Part shown: piece by piece, positions 1,340 to 61,979 of the stretch
Numbering within the stretch: position 1 is the stretch's first letter
Layout of the letters: each line of letters begins with the position of its first letter
Source: Prosopocoilus inquinatus
Lineage: Eukaryota; Arthropoda; Insecta; Coleoptera; Lucanidae
Assembly (NCBI GenBank): GCA_036172665.1
Contig: CM069872.1
Span: 42,890,101-42,954,100, forward strand
Length of the DNA: 64,000 nt
Direction of reading: 5' to 3'
Position numbers and translations under genes: made by a program
The notes under the pieces: generated by a model
Told to the model about the DNA's origin: nothing
The model's input: the letters and a program-made list of their open reading frames with translations, nothing else
Databases searched by the model: none

Positions 1340-1516
1340 AAACGCGTTCAATTAAATCCGTTATCGAGATGGCTTGGAACTTAGCTTAGTACGTATATTG
1401 AATAACTGCGAACTGTCAGCGGTGTTTACTGTCAAAGGTTCTGTTTACATTTTCGAGGTATTGTGTTCCGTTATTTGTGTTGTCGCTTTAATTCCATTAA
1501 AAAACAGTTCTTTTGG
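1340..1516 (+). repeat. Left terminal inverted repeat of the Tc1/mariner element
   Basis: This 177-bp arm is the reverse complement of 2771-2973, with scattered mismatches. It lacks a 26-bp stretch present in the right arm (after GGCTTGGAACTTA). The length difference of the arms, 203 minus 177, is exactly this indel. Confidence 0.85.
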
Positions 1517-1655
1517 CTTATGTCAAATGCAAATTTTACGAAGTCGCGTTAACTTAAGCCACATGATTATAATAAACATAACCCAACTTTTTATACCCAT
1601 TTATGATTTTCTATAAATTGAATAAAAGAATGCAATTAACGAAAACATTTATTTT

Positions 1656-2824
1656 TTACAAAAGGTGCTTAAAATGCCCACCACCTACTTCATAACATTT
1701 TAAAACACTACGTTTAAGGGAACTCACGACTACATTTTCTAACAAGTTCGGATTTTGATTAATTTCTTCAAATTTTTGCCTTATTCGGTGCTGTAGTTCT
1801 TCTCGATTGTTCATAGGGGTTGCAAATATTGAATTTTTAAGGAAAGGCCATAAAAAATAATCACAAGGTGTTAAATCGCACGACTTCGGAGGAAATGGTG
1901 TTGGAGTGTTGCGACTTATAATTCGGTCATCATAAAATTCATGAAGCATGGCCAATGTTTCTGCTGTACAGTGGGGTGTTGCACCATCTTGTTGAAAGTA
2001 ACCACCTTCTAACTCATCATCGTGAACGTTCTCCAAAACATGCGAATATAAGTTTAAAGATTATTTTTATGATTTATATATTTATAAACACCTTCAAAGA
2101 AAATTGGTCCAATTAATCGTCTGCCACTTATAGCGGCCCATACACCAATTTTTTCAGGATGCAATGGACGTTCAACAAACATATGAGGATTATCTGAATT
2201 CCAAGATCTCATATTCTGCGAATTTACATATCCAGACAAGTAGAACCACGATTCATCAGTAAAGAAAGTCATCCGTAGGGTATCGTCATCATTATTTAAA
2301 GTGTTTATAAACCATTGGCAAAATTCTAACCTCTGCGGTATATCAATGTCTTTCAATTCGTGAACTACTGTTAGTCGATAAGGATATAAATGTAAATCCT
2401 TTCTTAACATCGCATGAGATGTTCCAACTGAAAATTCCATTTGTTGCGCTAATTGTCGAACAGTTTTTGGGTTATTTTGCATGATTTCTCGTCCATCATC
2501 GATAACCTGTTGACTTCGTTTAAGAGGACGACCAGAACCTTCCTTTCTTAAGACACCTCCAGTTTCACGAAATAGCGTAACACATCGATCCAGCGTAGCA
2601 TTAAAATGGTTGTAGTCAATAATCAACTCCGGAAATTTAGCTCTGAACTCTTCTAAACAATCTGGTCTAGAATATACCCAATTGCCGTCAATTTTACGTC
2701 CATTTCGAAAATACGATTCTAACATAAACACTCTATGTTCAGTAGTAAACAGTTCTCGGCAGTTTAGTTCCCAAAAGAACTGTTTTTTAAAGGAATTAAA
2801 GCAACAACACAAATAACGGAACAC
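1656..2824 (-). pseudogene. DD(D) transposase of the Tc1/mariner element, one frameshift
   Basis: Cut-and-paste transposase. The N-terminal frame (2824 down to 2054, 256 residues) has a helix-turn-helix region resembling DUF4817 (about residues 26-100, ending GSGRP) and a second helical region (116-145, VRQLAQQMEFSVGTSHAMLR). The first catalytic Asp follows in FFTDESWF (D190). The C-terminal frame (2036 down to 1656) holds the second Asp in FQQDGATPHC and the third in LTPCDYFLW. These last two are 41 residues apart (residues between), giving a D..D41D pattern. The frames differ by one phase near 2050 in a T-rich run, so one small indel disrupts the gene. The first 25 codons lie in the right inverted repeat. 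The Met at residue 34 (MLESYF) is a likelier family start. Confidence 0.85.
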
Positions 2825-2973
2825 AATACTTCGAAAATGTAAACAAAACCTTTGACAGTAAACACCGCTGACAGTTCGCAGTTATTCAATATACGTACTA
2901 AGCTACGACATGCCGGTATAAAATAAAAGTAAGTTCCAAGCCATCTCGATAACGGATTTAATTGAACGCATTT
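2771..2973 (-). repeat. Right terminal inverted repeat of the Tc1/mariner element
   Basis: This 203-bp arm pairs with 1340-1516. It overlaps the 5' end of the open transposase frame and is the likely site of the transposase promoter. Confidence 0.85.
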
Positions 2974-5655: not shown

Positions 5656-7412
5656 GACATTATCTATTTAATTATTCTCATTATTATCTATTTATAGGTT
5701 TCATATTGTGAAGTATTCTTATATACCTTTTAAGCGAAATTTCGTTTTCGTAACGACTCTATTTCTTGTAGAAGATTTTGTTCAACTTTTAAAATAAATA
5801 TTAAGAACAAGCGTTTTTTAGGATACAGATAGAATAGACAAAGATCGAACACGTTAAGTGTTTACTTCAATAATTTTTGAAATTTACTACAAAATTCTGT
5901 TCAAGGAATTGAACCAAATCTTTTACCTACAAGATTTAAGGTAACAAAATTATTGTTCTCAAATGAACTTATTATTGTTATAGTGAAACTCTGTATTAAA
6001 TAATGTAGCTCAAACAAAAGTAATCAAGAACAATTTTATTGATATCAAACAAGAACGACAAGTAAGTAATTAATCAATGGAATCAAAGAGCAAACCCTAA
6101 AGCACAAAATTATGTGCAAGCCAATATAGGTACGTACACGTCAGCCATCCTTTATGCACTGCAATCTCCATAATAGAAGCAAATTTCTGAATACATGACA
6201 GCACAATGCAGGCACATTAGAACATCCAGCAACTGCCGTATACGACGAGTAGAACAGCACCCATAGGAAATATCTCGCCAAATTTGGAAATGTTGGTGTA
6301 TTGTAAAGTATAGTCACCAAAGACACTCTGAGAACCCTATCATTTTTAAGTCGGAAACTTTCGTCCGAATAAAAACGACGTTAACGTTCGTTCCGTTTTC
6401 CTGCGTTTTTCCTCGCAATCAAACAGTAACAAAAGAAAATTCGTAAAGAATTTATTTTTCAAATTAAACATGTTAATGAAATTTTTTTTCCTTCTTTCAG
6501 AAGCGCAATTAATCCTCCCTGCATTGTCGCCTCAGTGAATAATTTGTTTACACTTTCCGTTTTAAAAGAATCAGATTCCAATTAGCACAATTGGTTTTCC
6601 TTCACTCCGACATTCCGTGACGTTCTTCATTTCGTCACGCTGAATTTACTCTCGCGCTCTCAAAGCTTCGTTCGCAAACGAACGGGATGAATTTTATAAA
6701 GGAATTAATAATGAACGGGGGGAGGGGGGAAAGGTAATGTTTCAGTGATTCTCGTTTTCTCATTTTCTTTTTGAGCCTAATTAACATAGATGGAAGTTAA
6801 TAAATAACAAAAATGGAAACTCGATTAAGCTTTTTAGACGATCCAAATCTAAAGATATCGACGAGTGGTTATCAATAGTAAAATGTCGTAAATTACTTTT
6901 TCTTCTTCAAATTAGAACCAACACATAATGACAAAACATCGAGAAAAATATTTACATTTTGCTACATCCTATTCTATTTCGTGTTTCCTTCTCATTATTG
7001 GATACAAACTTAAAAATGAAAAATATCTTTATACTAAGTTAAAAAGGGTGAAAATGAATGACTCATTGGAAAAGTCTGCAATCGCATGAGTTGTTTAATA
7101 ACAAGTAACTAAAAAAGCTTTATTAAATTCTTCTAAATGTCTATGCAGCAAGTCTTTAAAACTTACAACTTTACTATTTAGTTTTACAAACATTTTCAAA
7201 CGTGCACGCAGAATCTACTCTGTAGTGATACTTTACAGAAAAGATTTAGAGAAGGACCTCTAATTGGGATTCCCCCTGGAACCTCTCAAGTGCTAAATCC
7301 GTCACTGTATCTGAGTTAATACATCAAATCATCAACTTCCTCTTCTCCAGTTATACTATGTTCTCGTTCTTGGATTATTTCAGTTAACACATTTCCCAAG
7401 TCTTTATTTTTA
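5656..7412. other. AT-rich DNA without recognisable features
   Basis: No gene, RNA or repeat could be supported. A purine run (GGGGGGAGGGGGGAAAGG) lies near 6717. Confidence 0.45.
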
Positions 7413-7466
7413 TTTTAGAAAAATTTTGTGCAAATCGTTTTTTATTGCAGTGAGAACCTCGAGCAG

Positions 7467-7513
7467 CCTCTGGACAGCTGTTTCAGCCCTGCTTGGGGCT
7501 TCTTCAGCAGAAA
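7467..7513 (-). ncRNA. Type I hammerhead self-cleaving ribozyme, array copy 1
   Basis: The minus strand carries a complete minimal hammerhead: core CUGAAGA, a 5-bp stem II (AGCCC/GGGCU) with a 6-nt loop, core GAAA, a very short stem III (ACAG/CUGU with no loop nucleotides, as in schistosome hammerheads), cleavage position C, and stem I (UUUCUG/CAGAGG). It is the same 47-nt motif as the copy at 8776-8822. Confidence 0.85.
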
Positions 7514-7778
7514 CGTAGCTCGACATTCCCACTGCAGACCAAAAACGACTTGCCCAATTTATTCGCAAATGCGATGTAAGAATGATGAACATATAAAATA
7601 GCGACATCTTACTATCGCTTTTTGACCTAACCTTGCAGTAGGATAGACAAATTGAAGCGGGATTTGCTCCTAATGAGTCCCCCATGCAAGGCGGCCATGC
7701 TTGCTGTCAAAGCATAATGAAAGATTTTAGAAAAAATTTGTGCAAATCGTTTTTGATTGCAGTGAGAACCTCGAGCAG

Positions 7779-7804
7779 CCTCTGGACAGCTGTTTCAGCC
7801 CTGC
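7779..7804 (-). ncRNA. Truncated hammerhead ribozyme, array copy 2
   Basis: Only the 3' half of the motif remains on the minus strand: the 3' arm of stem II, GAAA, stem III and the cleavage-side strand of stem I. The internal 166-bp deletion removed stem II loop, CUGAAGA and the other stem I strand. The copy cannot fold alone. The deletion junction has a 2-bp GC microhomology. Confidence 0.8.
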
Positions 7805-7924
7805 GGGATTTGCTCCTAATGAGTCCCCCATGCAAGGCGGCCATGCTTGCTGTCAAAGCATAATGAAAGATTTTAGAAAAATTTTGTGCAAATCGTTTTT
7901 GATTGCAGTGAGAACCTCGAGCAG

Positions 7925-7971
7925 CCTCTGGACAGCTGTTTCAGCCCTGCTTGGGGCTTCTTCAGCAGAAA
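7925..7971 (-). ncRNA. Type I hammerhead self-cleaving ribozyme, array copy 3
   Basis: Complete 47-nt motif on the minus strand with the same core and stems as copy 1. It lies in the left arm of the inverted repeat and is the exact mirror partner of the plus-strand copy at 8776-8822. Confidence 0.85.
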
Positions 7972-8355
7972 CGTAGCTCGACATTCCCACTGCAGACCAA
8001 AAACGACTTGCCCAATTTATTCGCAAATGCGATGTAAGAATGATGAACATATAAAATAGCGACATCTTACTATCGCTTTTTGACCCAACATTGCAGTAGG
8101 ATAGACAAATTGAAGCGGGATTTGCTCCTAATGAGTCCCATTATGCTTTGACAGCAAGCATGGCCGCCTTGCATGGGGGACTCATTAGGAGCAAATCCCG
8201 CTTCAATTTGTCTATCCTACTGCAATGTTAGGTCAAAAAGCGATAGTAAGATGTCGCTATTTTATATGTTCATCATTCTTACATCAAAGCATAATGAAAG
8301 ATTTTAGAAAAATTTTGTGCAAATCGTTTTTGATTGCAGTGAGAACCTCGAGCAG

Positions 8356-8402
8356 CCTCTGGACAGCTGTTTCAGCCCTGCTTGGGGCTTCTTCAGCAGA
8401 AA
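8356..8402 (-). ncRNA. Type I hammerhead self-cleaving ribozyme, array copy 4
   Basis: Complete 47-nt motif on the minus strand with intact CUGAAGA and GAAA cores. It lies in the spacer of the inverted repeat and so would sit in the loop of a folded transcript. Confidence 0.85.
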
Positions 8403-8775
8403 CGTAGCTCGACATTCCCACTGCAGACCAAAAACGACTTGCCCAATTTATTCGCAAATGCGATGTAAGAATGATGAACATATAAAATAGCGACATCTTA
8501 CTATCGCTTTTTGACCTAACATTGCAGTAGGATAGACAAATTGAAGCGGGATTTGCTCCTAATGAGTCCCCCATGCAAGGCGGCCATGCTTGCTGTCAAA
8601 GCATAATGGGACTCATTAGGAGCAAATCCCGCTTCAATTTGTCTATCCTACTGCAATGTTAGGTCAAAAAGTGATAGTAAGATGTCGCTATTTTATATGT
8701 TCATCATTCTTACATCGCATTTGCGAATAAATTGGGCAAGTCGTTTTTGGTCTGCAGTGGGAATGTCGAGCTACG

Positions 8776-8822
8776 TTTCTGCTGAAGAAGCCCCAAGCAG
8801 GGCTGAAACAGCTGTCCAGAGG
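8776..8822 (+). ncRNA. Type I hammerhead self-cleaving ribozyme, array copy 5
   Basis: Reference copy, read on the plus strand. Stem I is UUUCUG (8776-8781) with CAGAGG (8817-8822), four Watson-Crick and two G-U pairs. Core C3-A9 is CUGAAGA (8782-8788). Stem II is AGCCC (8789-8793) with GGGCU (8800-8804), closing loop CAAGCA. Core G12-A14 plus A15.1 is GAAA (8805-8808). Stem III is formed by A8808-CAG with CUG-U8815, with no loop nucleotides. C8816 is position 17, so cleavage is expected between 8816 and 8817. All invariant core positions (CUGANGA, GAA, H17) are present. Two successive cleavages in head-to-tail units would release a 312-nt monomer RNA. Cleavage is predicted, not shown. Confidence 0.88.
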
Positions 8823-9012
8823 CTGCTCGAGGTTCTCACTGCAATCAAAAACGATTTGCACAAAATTTTTCTAAAATCTTTCATTATGCTTTGACAGCAA
8901 GCATGGCCGCCTTGCATGGGGGACTCATTAGGAGCAAATCCCGCTTCAATTTGTCTATCCTACTGCAATGTTAGGTCAAAAAGCGATAGTAAGATGTCGC
9001 TATTTTATATGT

Positions 9013-9380
9013 TCTTTATTTTTAGTTATCTTTTCTTCTGCTTGAGTTATCTCAGTTATCTCAATACTTTTGCCAAATCTTCCTCAGTCATTATTTTAAC
9101 TGTTTCTGTAGGTGGGTCCGAGGAAAAAAAAGATCAACAAGAAATCTACACCGAATAATACTTTGTAAGGCGTACTTTTGATAATTCTACGGTGAGAGGA
9201 TTTTTTTTCCATTAGAAAAAATTGCATCCAAGTAACCAATTTGTTGAATTATTATCTTGACGCCATGGTCTTAGCATTGTCTTGTCTTCAACATCCTTAT
9301 TGGACCCTTGACCTTTGCTTGGTGGGACATTGGAAGGCGGTAAGCAAGGCAAACACGATATGAGGGCTCAAAAATATGTC
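9013..9380. other. Spacer, no gene seen
   Basis: The ribozyme repeat stops abruptly near 9012. No feature is visible up to the repeat block that follows. Confidence 0.45.
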
Positions 9381-28239: not shown

Positions 28240-28308
28240 ACTTATCTCACATCCCTTTGAACTTTTTCCAGCCATCTCTTCCTGGGACATCCACTTCTTT
28301 TTCCTCCT

Positions 28309-28912
28309 AATAGAACTATTTTTACCAACCTGTCTTCAGACATCCTGCCTATATGTCCTGACCATCTTGCCCTTTGCGCTCTCACAGTTTGGGTAACACT
28401 TGGTTTTTTATAGAGTTCTTGTAATATATTGTGTGTTCTTCTTCTATGCTCTCCGTCTAATTTTTTCCCTTCATAGATCTTCCTCAATATCCTTCGTTCC
28501 CACATTTCAGGTGTCGTTTCTTCTTTTCTATTCATTGTTCAACAGTTTCATTAGAGTCTGATACAGTTTGACTTTTTACTTTTACTCTTCTTCTTCTTCT
28601 TCCTCTTAATAAAACTCATTTTACCCACCTGTCAACATCCTGGCTACATCTCCTAACCTTCATGCCCTTTGCGCCCTCATCGTTTGGGTAATACTTGATT
28701 TTTTATGCAATATTGCTTGTTCTTCTTCAGTGCTCCTCCTCTACTTTTTTCCCTCCGGAGATCTTCGTCAATATCCTTTGTTCCCACATTTCGGGTGTTG
28801 TTTCTTCTTTTCTTTTCATTATCCAACGGTTTTATTACTGCCTGATACAGTTTTACTTTCTACTTTTACTCTTCTTCTTCTTCTTCTTCTTCTTCTTCTT
28901 CTTCTTCTTCTT

Positions 28913-28943
<31 letters not shown>

Positions 28944-29150
28944 ATAAAATTCCTTTTATCCACCTGTCAACATCCTGGCTACATTTCCTAACTATCTTGC
29001 CCTTTGCACCCTCACCGTTTGGGTAATACTTGTTTTTTTTTTATGGAAAATTGCTTGTTCTTCTTCTCTGCACTTCGTCTCCTTTTTTCCCTCCGGAGAC
29101 CTTCGTCAATGTCCTTCGTTCTCACATTTCTTCTTCTTCTCTTCTAGCGC
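28309..29150 (-). repeat. Triplicated LINE 3' segment with (CTT)n expansion
   Basis: Three successive copies of a ~300-bp LINE segment start at about 28309, 28607 and 28943. Each begins AATA(A/G)AA(C/T)T...ACC(A/C)ACCTGTC and continues through CTTGCCCTTTGC, GTTTGGGTAA and TGTTCTTCTTC. A (CTT)n run at the end of unit 2 is expanded to 70+ bp (28870-28942); unit 1 has a short CTT run at the same place (near 28586). Confidence 0.8.
28870..28942. repeat. (CTT)n microsatellite
   Basis: About 24 uninterrupted TTC repeats. They produce long apparent Phe and Leu runs in two plus-strand frames that should not be annotated. Confidence 0.95.
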
Positions 29151-52222: not shown

Positions 52223-52786
52223 CCACGACAACGCACATACCTACACAGTCTCAACGACTAACAAGAAGCAGTAGCAAGTTAAGCTCTGACTAAACTATTT
52301 CTGCACCAATTGAATTCTATTGTTTTTATCGTGCATGAAGCTTCTGAAACATCGAAATCCATCCAGCAGTAGATGTCGTGTAATTGTCCATTCCGTTACG
52401 CTTCCATTACACTTGGAACCAAATGTTGTGCCAACATGTTTATTTTCTCAACCTTTTGCAGCTGCCAAGTATTGATAAAAACGGAGATTTCCTATTAATT
52501 GTTTATGCTAAAATACAACACCGTATGTATTGATAAACGATCAAAGTTTTAGAAATTTCGTGACTGCAACATCTTCCGTGTTATTTTCTATTCGATTTGA
52601 AATAATAAATTTTCCGTGCAGAATTCTTCATTCTGAAAGTGTCAAGTAAAAACATTTTTGTTTAAAATAATGCGAACCTCTCGGACTTTTTTCTTTTTAA
52701 TGTAAATGTGTATTTATCTGGTAGTTAATAACAAAATAATAATCCCTTTTTGTACAGCAAACTAAGATGTCTTTTCCTTCTTACAG

Positions 52787-52947
52787 AGTGTCCCCCGGCA
52801 AGCGACGGCATGGAAAGATTCGCCTGCCCAACACCCGACCGACAAGGTCGATACCATTGCATAGATGATCATGTACTGTGCGATGGCTTCATAGACTGTC
52901 CTTCTGGTGAAGATGAGGATCGCCAGTCGTGCATGTTTTACAAAACG
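52787..52947 (+). CDS. Internal exon: LDL-receptor class A domain, prohormone-4/ITG-like candidate
   Basis: A 161-bp exon lies between a pyrimidine-rich acceptor (CTTTTCCTTCTTACAG) and a donor (ACG|GTAAGA). It enters in phase 1 and leaves in phase 0. It encodes one complete LDLa module: six cysteines (in ECPP, FAC, YHC, VLC, IDC, QSC) with the calcium-binding acidic end CDGFIDCPSGEDED. LDLa modules are disulfide-bonded extracellular folds, so the protein is secreted or membrane-bound. The wording ERFACPTPDRQGRYHCIDDH and the CMFYKT exit recall insect prohormone-4 (ITG-like neuropeptide precursor), which from memory contains a single LDLa module; Jeb/HEN-1-like secreted ligands are the alternative. 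I found no signal-peptide exon or following exon in the window, so introns must be large. Confidence 0.85.
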
Positions 52948-53612
52948 GTAAGAAGAATTATTTTTTAATCTTTACAATGAAAAAAAAATACTAGTTAAAT
53001 CACCTACAGGACGTATACGAATTCGATCGACAAACATTTTGAGTATATTTGGCGCCTCAAGACGTACAGGGTGACTATGCGAGACCCACCACCTTTAACC
53101 TCTTTATTTTTAAATTTTGAAATAGAAAGAAGTGTCTATTATAAAATCTTTATAGACTGATTCAAAGTTTACAGAAAAACAAATGAACAATGCATAACTG
53201 AGATATAAACTGGAATTTAAATGGAACACTTGGTATATTTGAAATCTTAAATAATAATCGCGTTTCTTTTTCTTAAACATATTTTATTTTTTAAAACTTG
53301 GTTTAATTGTAATTCCTGGCATTTTGTCTAAGAGACGATTATTCACATTTTATGACAGGTGTCGGTATCTACCCCTTGGCGATCGATTGAAGACTTAAAA
53401 GAAGTCGATGAACCTTTAGGGGTCTGCTAGTGCTCTTTCAGGCAGTCGGAGCTGTTAAGTCTTGTTTAATGGAGACCTAACTGAATAGTTTATAAAAAAA
53501 GTAAAAGATCTACAAATAATATTAAATAAATTTGAATCAGCTCGAATAAAAGAGAAAACGAAAGACGTTCAATTGATTATCGAAATCAAAACACCCCTAA
53601 AATACGAGTAAA
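52948..53612. other. Intron-like AT-rich DNA
   Basis: Follows the LDLa exon donor. ACAGGGTGACTATGCGAGACC at about 53067 resembles the CAGGGTG start of many insect DNA transposons, but no second end was found. Confidence 0.35.
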
Positions 53613-53705
53613 ATTGAGCAAAATTTTGTTACAATCGTTCAATTTGTCAATCCCAATGCAATATTAGGTCAAAAGGCAATCGCAGGATGCCGCTATTCAA
53701 ACTGT
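53613..53705 (-). repeat. Relic of the 363-bp ribozyme repeat, ribozyme deleted
   Basis: CAATTTGTCAATCC(C)AATGCAATATTAGGTCAAAA and GCAATCGCAGGATG match the reverse complement of 61619-61670. They are preceded directly by the part that follows the hammerhead (CAAAATTTTGTTACAATCG). The ~100 bp with the ribozyme is missing between them. Confidence 0.6.
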
Positions 53706-60776: not shown

Positions 60777-61100
60777 AAAGCGATAAATAGCCATAAAAGG
60801 AAATTAATTGTTATTATCGGCATCTTTAGAATGGACCCTTTAAAAGCGTTGCTTTTGGCTTTTGCCCCTAAAGTGTTCTTCTTCCTTTGCTTGCCCTTGT
60901 ATTATCTAAACAAAGACAACTATTGTGGTGTTACAGGTCGAGATTGTTGAATGCAACCATTATTGGAACCCTCATTAAGCAGCACAAATAAAGAGCAAAG
61001 TACAAACCAATTATTCAAAATTAATCGAACCAAAAAAGTTGTTTGTCAAGTTGTTTCATTTTCAAACATTTAAGTTAAGTTGCACTCCAAGTATCTATTT
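60777..61100. other. No recognisable feature
   Basis: Nothing supported. Confidence 0.4.
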
Positions 61101-61307
61101 AAATTGACCTAAGGATCGCCAGTTTTAGTTAAACTCCAGGATTGTAGATGGCGTTGATTTTAGAACATCATCGTTCACTAATTCAACTGAAATAGAAAGA
61201 TACCAACGAGTTTGTTGATAACTATCTTAACTTTTAACGAAAAGTTTAAGTACTGACATCCTGCGATCGATTTTTGACCTGACATTGCATTAGGATTGAT
61301 AAATTGA

Positions 61308-61354
61308 AGCCCTCTGACGAGGGCTCAAATAGAGCTGAAACAGCTGTACAGAGG
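61308..61354 (+). ncRNA. Decayed hammerhead ribozyme, older family copy 1
   Basis: CUGACGA (61314-61320) and GAAA (61337-61340) are intact. Stem II pairs (G)GGCUC with GAGCU around AAAUA, with one extra G. Stem III is ACAG/CUGU as in the young family; the cleavage base is A61348. Stem I is damaged: the base before CUGACGA is U where G should pair with C61349. Probably inactive or weak. Confidence 0.6.
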
Positions 61355-61671
61355 ACGCTAGAGGAATCCATTTCAATTAAAAATGATTTGCAACAAATTT
61401 CTTTAACTGTTAACTGATTTACTTCCGCTCTACATCTGCAGATGACGTTGGTTAAACGTGTTTAAATTGACCTAAGGATCACTAGTTTTAGTTAAACTCC
61501 AGGGTTGTAGATGGCGATGATTTTAAAACATCATCGTTCGCTAATTCAACTGAAATAGGAAGATACCAACAAGCCTGTTGATAACTAACTTAACTTTTAA
61601 CGAAAAGTTTAAGTGGCGACATCCTGCGATCACTTTTTGACCTGACATTGCATTAGGATTGATAAATTGAA

Positions 61672-61717
61672 GCCTGCTGACGAGGCCCCATATAGAGATA
61701 AAACAGCTGTACAGAGG
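61672..61717 (+). ncRNA. Decayed hammerhead ribozyme, older family copy 2
   Basis: CUGACGA (61677-61683), stem III and the start of stem I (CUG/CAG) are present. Stem II has lost pairing (GGCCCC against GAGAU) and GAAA has become AAAA at its first position (61700-61703 region), so the copy is inactive by expectation. Confidence 0.6.
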
Positions 61718-61979
61718 ACGCTCGAGGAATCCACTGCAATTAAAAACGATTTGCAACAAATTTCTTTAACTGTTAACTGATTTACTTCCGCTCTACAACT
61801 GCAGATGACGTTGGTTTTGAAACGACGATGCGCATTTGTCGTTCTAATTCCGGTTTTGAACTCAAGATAGTGCTGGTGTTTGACTATCTCAAATTCCTAG
61901 ATTTTTTTGGTCCTTATGAACCTTTAGTTTGAACAGAAATCAATTAATTAACACGCGTTTGTTGATTTACATCGTCTTT

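What the first reader, a model, noticed from the sequence alone, without database searches (positions are those of the whole stretch)
7413..9012. Array of minimal type I hammerhead ribozymes in 312-bp repeats (retrozyme-like locus)
Four complete 47-nt hammerheads and one truncated copy are seen, with every invariant core base (CUGANGA, GAA, H17), three pairing stems and an extremely short stem III as in schistosome hammerheads. Head-to-tail 312-bp units would yield 312-nt self-cleaved, possibly circular RNAs. The seen facts are the motif and the period; similarity to metazoan retrozymes and Penelope-like ends is from known families; activity and circularisation are inferred.
Basis: partly seen in the sequence, partly recalled or inferred. 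Interest (0 to 1): 0.9.

Follow-up and report, generated by a model that had tools for sequence, protein, structure and literature searches.

The report
Insect retrozyme insertion with inverted units
A 1.6-kilobase stretch of a likely insect genome is built from scrambled 312-base units, four of which carry the complete core of a self-cutting hammerhead RNA, and it looks like a small mobile element that was likely copied from RNA back into DNA and pasted in, with some units flipped, by the enzyme of another, likely Penelope-like, element.

Summary
The motif is real; the array was misread. Window 7413-9012 holds four identical 47-nt sequences with every invariant type I hammerhead core base, plus one truncated copy. 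Rfam RF00163 aligns over its whole length but scores 23.8 bits, below its cutoff of 34. This is not a head-to-tail array: three intact copies lie on the minus strand and one on the plus strand, one lap has lost 166 bp, and the strand switches three times. The block sits between perfect 12-bp direct repeats, TCTTTATTTTTA, so it likely entered as one piece. Diverged relatives lie at 61098-61816 (two 363-bp units, decayed hammerheads) and 53638-53693 (body module only). Best reading: a non-autonomous metazoan non-LTR retrozyme whose inverted laps, long target duplication and internal deletion resemble what Penelope-like elements leave. The monomer hammerhead is not the predicted ground state; the two-copy fold is a double hammerhead, although dimer stability itself is not unusual. 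Cleavage, circles and the mobilising enzyme are untested, and the host genome could not be searched. A new member of a known kind with an informative insertion structure.

The parts
7401..7412 (.). left 12-bp direct repeat TCTTTATTTTTA (likely target duplication; its last A also fits unit position 1)
7412..7723 (-). segment 1: complete 312-bp unit, hammerhead sense on minus strand
7467..7513 (-). intact hammerhead motif
7724..7869 (-). segment 2: lap with 166 bp missing (unit 1-80 joined to 247-312)
7779..7804 (-). truncated hammerhead, CUGANGA lost
7870..8139 (-). segment 3: unit 1-270
7925..7971 (-). intact hammerhead motif
8140..8284 (+). segment 4: flipped, unit 307 to 163, after head-to-head junction J1
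8285..8608 (-). segment 5: unit 297-312 then 1-308, after tail-to-tail junction J2
8356..8402 (-). intact hammerhead motif
8609..9012 (+). segment 6: flipped, unit 269 to 1 then 312 to 178, after head-to-head junction J3 (mirror of J1)
8776..8822 (+). intact hammerhead motif, predicted cut 8816/8817
9013..9024 (.). right 12-bp direct repeat TCTTTATTTTTA (its first TC also fits the element)
61098..61816 (+). diverged relative: two 363-bp tandem units with decayed hammerheads starting at CTGACGA 61314 and 61677
53638..53693 (-). relic with the shared body module; no ribozyme-tail module detected

Best explanation
Window 7413-9012, bounded by perfect 12-bp direct repeats, is likely one insertion of a non-autonomous retrozyme-type element, whose 312-bp units carry the complete type I hammerhead core and whose RNA is predicted to cut itself into 312-nt pieces that would likely be circularised, reverse-transcribed and pasted in by a Penelope-like or related non-LTR enzyme. 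Shown: the motif, the 312-bp unit, six segments on both strands, the 166-bp deletion, the direct repeats, and diverged relatives in the same window. Predicted by folding: the hammerhead sits at the tip of a long hairpin, and because stem III has only two pairs, two copies would pair through the palindrome ACAGCUGU and cut each other as a double hammerhead. Inferred: a host ligase closes the ring; another element's reverse transcriptase copies it round and round, which gives tandem laps; the antisense cDNA folds back on itself from unit position 308 to 269 (a 37-nt loop), giving head-to-head junction J3, and copying gives its mirror J1; a further switch (J2) and a deletion complete the block, which enters AT-rich DNA at a staggered cut of about 12 bp.
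For: Four intact copies; at least one site in 2 of 200 simulated windows. RF00163 aligned over positions 1-45 of 45. Between the 312 unit and copy 1 of the 363 family all 8 differences in the 35-nt core lie on N7, stem II, loop II or H17. Unit RNA self-paired, z -6.8, 0 of 100 shuffles as good. Ground state of two 93-nt copies folded together is the double hammerhead. Direct repeats of 12 bp; a shared word of 12 or more in 5 of 20,000 non-overlapping random flank pairs. J1 and J3 are mirror images, so one junction was copied. Literature: retrozymes of about 170-400 nt, target duplications longer than 4 bp, PLEs named as strong candidate for mobilisation (PMC7229834); PLE insertions in a rotifer with inverted terminal repeats, 8-10 bp duplications, microhomology deletion and inferred self-priming, head-to-head most frequent (PMC3846280 passages); AT-rich target preference of a PLE (PMC11167929 passages).
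Against: Rfam score below cutoff. As a monomer the hammerhead fold is 6 kcal/mol above the ground state, A15.1-U16.1 has probability 5e-5 and core base C3 is paired at 0.998. The energy gained on dimerising is not special: 190 of 200 tip-shuffled controls gain as much or more. Pair 10.1-11.1 is A-U, not G-C. All four copies are identical, so the block offers no covariation. Stem II is not kept in register in either 363-family copy, copy 2 has lost G12, and neither gives an Rfam hammerhead match. No reverse transcriptase or GIY-YIG domain in the 100 of 100 ORFs of 70 aa or more. Some PLE insertions lack a target duplication, and LINE enzymes are not excluded. The simple snap-back for J2 would predict one more lap than is present. 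Host genome not searched.
Confidence: 0.7

Rival explanations
1. A decayed retrozyme: the element belongs to the family, but these copies no longer cut, being held in the alternative hairpin and weakened by the A-U pair at 10.1-11.1.
For: Monomer ground state sequesters the core; Rfam score below cutoff; relatives in the window are decayed.
Against: Four of four copies outside the deleted lap keep every core base; segments differ at only five unit positions, so the insertion is young; changed 10.1-11.1 pairs occur in other natural hammerheads (passages).
Confidence: 0.2
2. A retrozyme moved by a LINE-type enzyme (twin priming or template switching) and not by a Penelope-like one.
For: PMC7229834 names LINEs as well as PLEs as possible movers; a 12-bp duplication fits LINEs too (recalled).
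Against: Repeated head-to-head inversions in one insertion are described for PLEs (PMC3846280 passages); no poly-A tail at either border.
Confidence: 0.25
3. A DNA rearrangement of a former head-to-tail satellite array (inversions and deletions in place), or an assembly or amplification artefact.
For: Nearly perfect long inverted repeats (2 mismatches in 483, 1 in 287) are typical of artefacts and of young rearrangements.
Against: Perfect direct repeats exactly at both borders and unmirrored flanks; segments carry private differences, which one-molecule artefacts would not.
Confidence: 0.12
4. A protein-coding sequence that resembles a hammerhead by chance.
For: One sense frame has a single stop per 312-nt lap and reads through the motif; the 363 family reads a similar peptide; in the 35-nt core 5 of 8 and 5 of 9 differences are at third codon positions.
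Against: In the 60-nt tail differences are even over codon positions (5/6/6 and 4/5/4); no Pfam match and no homologue with E up to 0.001 among 5 candidates; chance motif rare.
Confidence: 0.03

Closest known systems
Metazoan non-LTR retrozymes with type I hammerheads (PMC7229834)
   Same: Unit of 312 bp within about 170-400, GC 0.43, type I core, stem III of two pairs with a palindromic tetraloop, strong self-pairing, target duplication longer than 4 bp, no recognised coding capacity
   Different: Laps lie on both strands with one internal deletion; the published ones are described as tandem repeats and the main text has no occurrence of 'inverted'. Expression and circles not tested here.
Axolotl HHR_Amex2 and newt satellite hammerheads (PMC7229834)
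   Same: Weak stem III with tetraloop, function as dimer; Amex2 also departs from G-C at the base of stem II (U-U)
   Different: A-U here, 312-bp unit, likely insect; dimer function only predicted
pDo500 satellite hammerhead of Dolichopoda cave crickets (PMC2837043 passages)
   Same: Insect repeat with a hammerhead of about 49 nt, single and double forms proposed, compensatory changes at 10.1-11.1
   Different: About 500-bp satellite, abundant in the genome; sequences not compared here
Penelope-like elements (PMC3846280 and PMC11167929 passages)
   Same: Inverted copies within insertions, target duplications (8, 9, 10 bp in the passages), AT-rich targets, microhomology deletions, hammerheads in terminal repeats
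   Different: No reverse transcriptase or GIY-YIG gene here; the retrozyme would be a passenger

Membership tests
Type I hammerhead ribozyme | Invariant core CUGANGA, GAA, A15.1-U16.1, H17 | tested here: met
   four of four intact copies
Type I hammerhead ribozyme | Three stems around the core, stem I open | tested here: met
   stem I 6-7 bp, stem II 5 bp, stem III 2 bp can form; not the monomer ground state
Type I hammerhead ribozyme | Usual G-C pair at 10.1-11.1 | tested here: not met
   A-U; not treated as excluding, since changed pairs are reported in natural hammerheads
Rfam RF00163 by its curated score | 34 bits or more | tested here: not met
   23.8 bits, none; so not filed as an automatic RF00163 member
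Type I hammerhead ribozyme | Loop 1 - loop 2 contact | tested here: inconclusive
   internal loop UAC/U and hexaloop CAAGCA exist in the constrained fold; contact not modelled
Type I hammerhead ribozyme | Self-cleavage after H17 | not testable with these tools
   needs an in vitro assay
Metazoan non-LTR retrozyme | Tandem units of about 170-400 bp, one hammerhead each | tested here: met
   312-bp unit with lap joins at 7724, 7870, 8301 and 8878, but interrupted by three strand switches and a deletion
Metazoan non-LTR retrozyme | Target duplication longer than 4 bp | tested here: met
   12 bp; 9 to 12 if letters shared with the element are left out
Metazoan non-LTR retrozyme | Low GC (below about 45-50%) | tested here: met
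   0.43
Metazoan non-LTR retrozyme | Highly self-paired unit RNA | tested here: met
   -118.3 kcal/mol, z -6.8
Metazoan non-LTR retrozyme | No protein-coding capacity | tested here: met
   no Pfam match above a cutoff for the ORFs in the block, no homologue
Metazoan non-LTR retrozyme | Unit-length linear and circular RNA in tissue | not testable with these tools
   no RNA data
Autonomous Penelope-like element | Reverse transcriptase with GIY-YIG endonuclease | tested here: not met
   no such match in 100 of 100 ORFs of 70 aa or more; the block is not filed as a PLE
Penelope-type insertion layout | Head-to-head inverted copies within one insertion flanked by a target duplication | tested here: met
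   J1 and J3 head-to-head, 12-bp repeats, compared with passages of PMC3846280

The most novel reading that the evidence does not exclude
The locus is a frozen record of how animal retrozymes move: a hammerhead-made RNA ring was copied round by a Penelope-type reverse transcriptase, the cDNA snapped back on itself at a stem-loop (mirror-image head-to-head junctions with a 37-nt loop), and the mixed-strand product went into a 12-bp staggered AT-rich site. This is the structural evidence still missing for Penelope-like elements as partners of animal retrozymes, with cutting done by a double hammerhead.
Probability: 0.35. Interest if true: 0.6.

Novelty: new member of a known kind. Interest (0 to 1): 0.42.

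Why it matters
What moves animal retrozymes is open; Penelope-like elements are the named candidate because the two co-occur and both form tandem copies (PMC7229834 passage). One insertion that holds inverted laps, a mirror pair of head-to-head junctions and a 12-bp duplication gives a concrete fingerprint to look for in every genome with retrozymes. The second family in the same 64 kb shows how far these elements rearrange around the ribozyme: in the 312 unit the shared body module runs opposite to the ribozyme, in the 363 family along with it.

Tried and rejected
Protein-coding reading: weakened by even codon-position differences in the tail, no Pfam match and no homologue. Hammerhead on both polarities of the unit (viroid-like): the descriptor found none on the antisense strand, and Rfam none at gathering score. 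Weak Rfam rows: the best is MIR169_2 (25.5 bits, cutoff 50, E 0.00086), which spans the long inverted repeat; this row and the CRISPR, snoRNA, Dictyostelium and mir rows lie below their cutoffs and were set aside. Relatives elsewhere: the exact motif was not found in viral contigs or genome contigs; a looser pattern gave 0 in viral contigs and 1 stretch in genome contigs, L001, without a matching stem II and in what looks like a bacterial gene (by eye), taken as chance. Dimer stability as proof of the double hammerhead: rejected by its control (190 of 200); only the form of the two-copy ground state is used. Hammerheads in the 363 family: no Rfam hammerhead match for either copy. Papers: six searches, listings of 10-20 rows each, showed no report of this family or of inverted laps in an animal retrozyme; most subscription journals are not in that library, so absence from print is not claimed.

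Full report
What is there. Four identical 47-nt motifs lie at 8776-8822 (+), 8356-8402 (-), 7925-7971 (-) and 7467-7513 (-). Each reads UUUCUG-CUGAAGA-AGCCC-CAAGCA-GGGCU-GAA-ACAGCUGU-C|CAGAGG: stem I, core, stem II with a hexaloop, GAA, a two-pair stem III around the loop AGCU, H17 = C, and stem I again. A descriptor with core and paired stems, written after the motif had been seen, finds only these sites on both strands of the window and at least one site in 2 of 200 first-order Markov simulations. Rfam gives no match at gathering scores; relaxed, RF02275 at 14.5 bits, E 7.8 in 2.8 kb and RF00163, type I, at 23.8 bits against a cutoff of 34, E 0.00046 in 116 nt, with the whole model aligned. 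The pair 10.1-11.1 is A-U where G-C is usual.

Layout. Against the complete unit 7412-7723 (312 bp, GC 0.43) the block parses without gaps: 7412-7723 forward 1-312; 7724-7803 forward 1-80 joined to 7804-7869 forward 247-312 (166 bp missing); 7870-8139 forward 1-270; 8140-8284 reversed 307 to 163; 8285-8608 forward 297-312 then 1-308; 8609-9012 reversed 269 to 1 then 312 to 178 (the fit runs on by two shared letters to 9014). Forward means that the hammerhead sense is on the minus strand. The junctions at 8139/8140 (J1) and 8608/8609 (J3) are head-to-head and mirror images of each other; the one at 8284/8285 (J2) is tail-to-tail. One search prints the inverted arms of 483 and 287 nt as 100% complementary; counted, they hold 2 and 1 mismatches. 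Segments differ from each other at five unit positions only, 13, 32, 206, 217 and 221, so the insertion looks young.

Borders. TCTTTATTTTTA stands at 7401-7412 and 9013-9024. One letter on the left and two on the right also fit the element. A shared word of 12 or more occurred in 43 of 20,000 random flank pairs when draws could overlap and in 5 of 20,000 when they could not; the borders were chosen before this test from the same sequence. Neither flank is mirrored. The simplest reading is one insertion.

Relatives in the window. Two 363-bp tandem units, 92% alike, at 61098-61816 share the ribozyme-plus-tail module with the 312 unit (76 of 96 and 70 of 93 letters) and the body module (49 of 58), but the body runs the other way relative to the ribozyme. 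In the 35-nt core, copy 1 differs from the 312 unit at 8 places, all on N7, stem II, loop II or H17; copy 2 differs at 9, one of them the invariant G12 (letters). Stem II is out of register in both, and Rfam gives no hammerhead match for either, so both look decayed. A relic at 53638-53693 (-) has the body module; by eye a tail-like stretch follows it directly, but the tail profile did not find it there.

Folding. The ribozyme sits at the tip of a long imperfect hairpin (8742-8850, -54.8 kcal/mol, z -6.4); the bare 47-nt motif is not unusually stable (z -0.7, 45 of 200 shuffles as good). The unit RNA folds at -118.3, z -6.8 (sense) and -91.6, z -3.9 (antisense). In a 93-nt monomer the hammerhead fold is at -42.2 against a ground state of -48.2, A15.1-U16.1 has probability 5e-5 and C3 is paired at 0.998. 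Two copies together have the double hammerhead as ground state, -100.3, with the stem III pair at 0.53. The gain on dimerising, 3.9 kcal/mol, is below that of most controls: 190 of 200 tip-shuffled sequences gain as much or more. Tertiary contacts are not in the model.

Host. The ORF 2057-2881 (-) has a sub-cutoff DUF4817 match and lies within inverted repeats of 135 bp. It has 75 protein matches; most bear no organism, and those named are insects, with Tribolium castaneum the best named and Zophobas morio, Cryptotermes, Periplaneta, Aromia and Asbolus further down. This suggests an insect; it rests on a mobile gene.

Mechanism. Animal retrozymes of about 170-400 nt with type I hammerheads form circles, have target duplications over 4 bp, and Penelope-like elements are named as a strong candidate for moving them (PMC7229834: parts 1-3 of 6 and passages). 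Penelope insertions in a rotifer show inverted terminal repeats, duplications of 8, 9 and 10 bp (some have none), a microhomology deletion, and inferred self-priming; the authors argue that the frequent head-to-head form needs an antisense template (PMC3846280 passages). In the present block an antisense cDNA that ends at unit position 308 and folds back to 269, a 37-nt loop, gives J3, and J1 is its copy. The left end, J1, J3 and one side of J2 lie at unit positions 269-312 and 1, the other side of J2 and the right end at 163-178; this is a small-number observation. Not explained: a simple snap-back for J2 predicts one more lap between J1 and J2 than is present. No reverse transcriptase or GIY-YIG domain was found in any of the 100 stop-to-stop ORFs of 70 aa or more (list, E limits 0.01, 1 and 0.1); shorter remnants would be missed.

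Verdict. A retrozyme-type element with an intact hammerhead core, a new member of a known kind. Cutting, circles, enzyme and copy number are untested, and the host genome could not be reached.

Noticed in passing
window 61098-61816: Two 363-bp tandem units, 92% alike, related to the 312-bp unit, with decayed hammerheads and the body module in the same direction as the ribozyme.
   Followed up: yes
window 53638-53693 (-): A lone copy of the shared body module; by eye a tail-like stretch follows without a ribozyme between, but the tail profile did not detect it.
   Followed up: partly
window 1382-2905: 135-bp inverted repeats (97%) around an ORF of 275 codons with DUF4817 trace and insect transposase-like relatives.
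   Followed up: partly
window 52732-52965 (+): ORF with a sub-cutoff LDL receptor class A match (E 0.00064), perhaps a host exon.
   Followed up: no
window 28294-29039: Imperfect tandem repeats (period 284, and copies 335 bp apart) around a (TCT)n run of 24 copies.
   Followed up: no
window 8287-8595 (-): The 312-nt unit is 104 codons long and one sense frame has a single stop per lap, giving a 103-codon ORF through the ribozyme; no coding signature in the tail and no homologue.
   Followed up: yes
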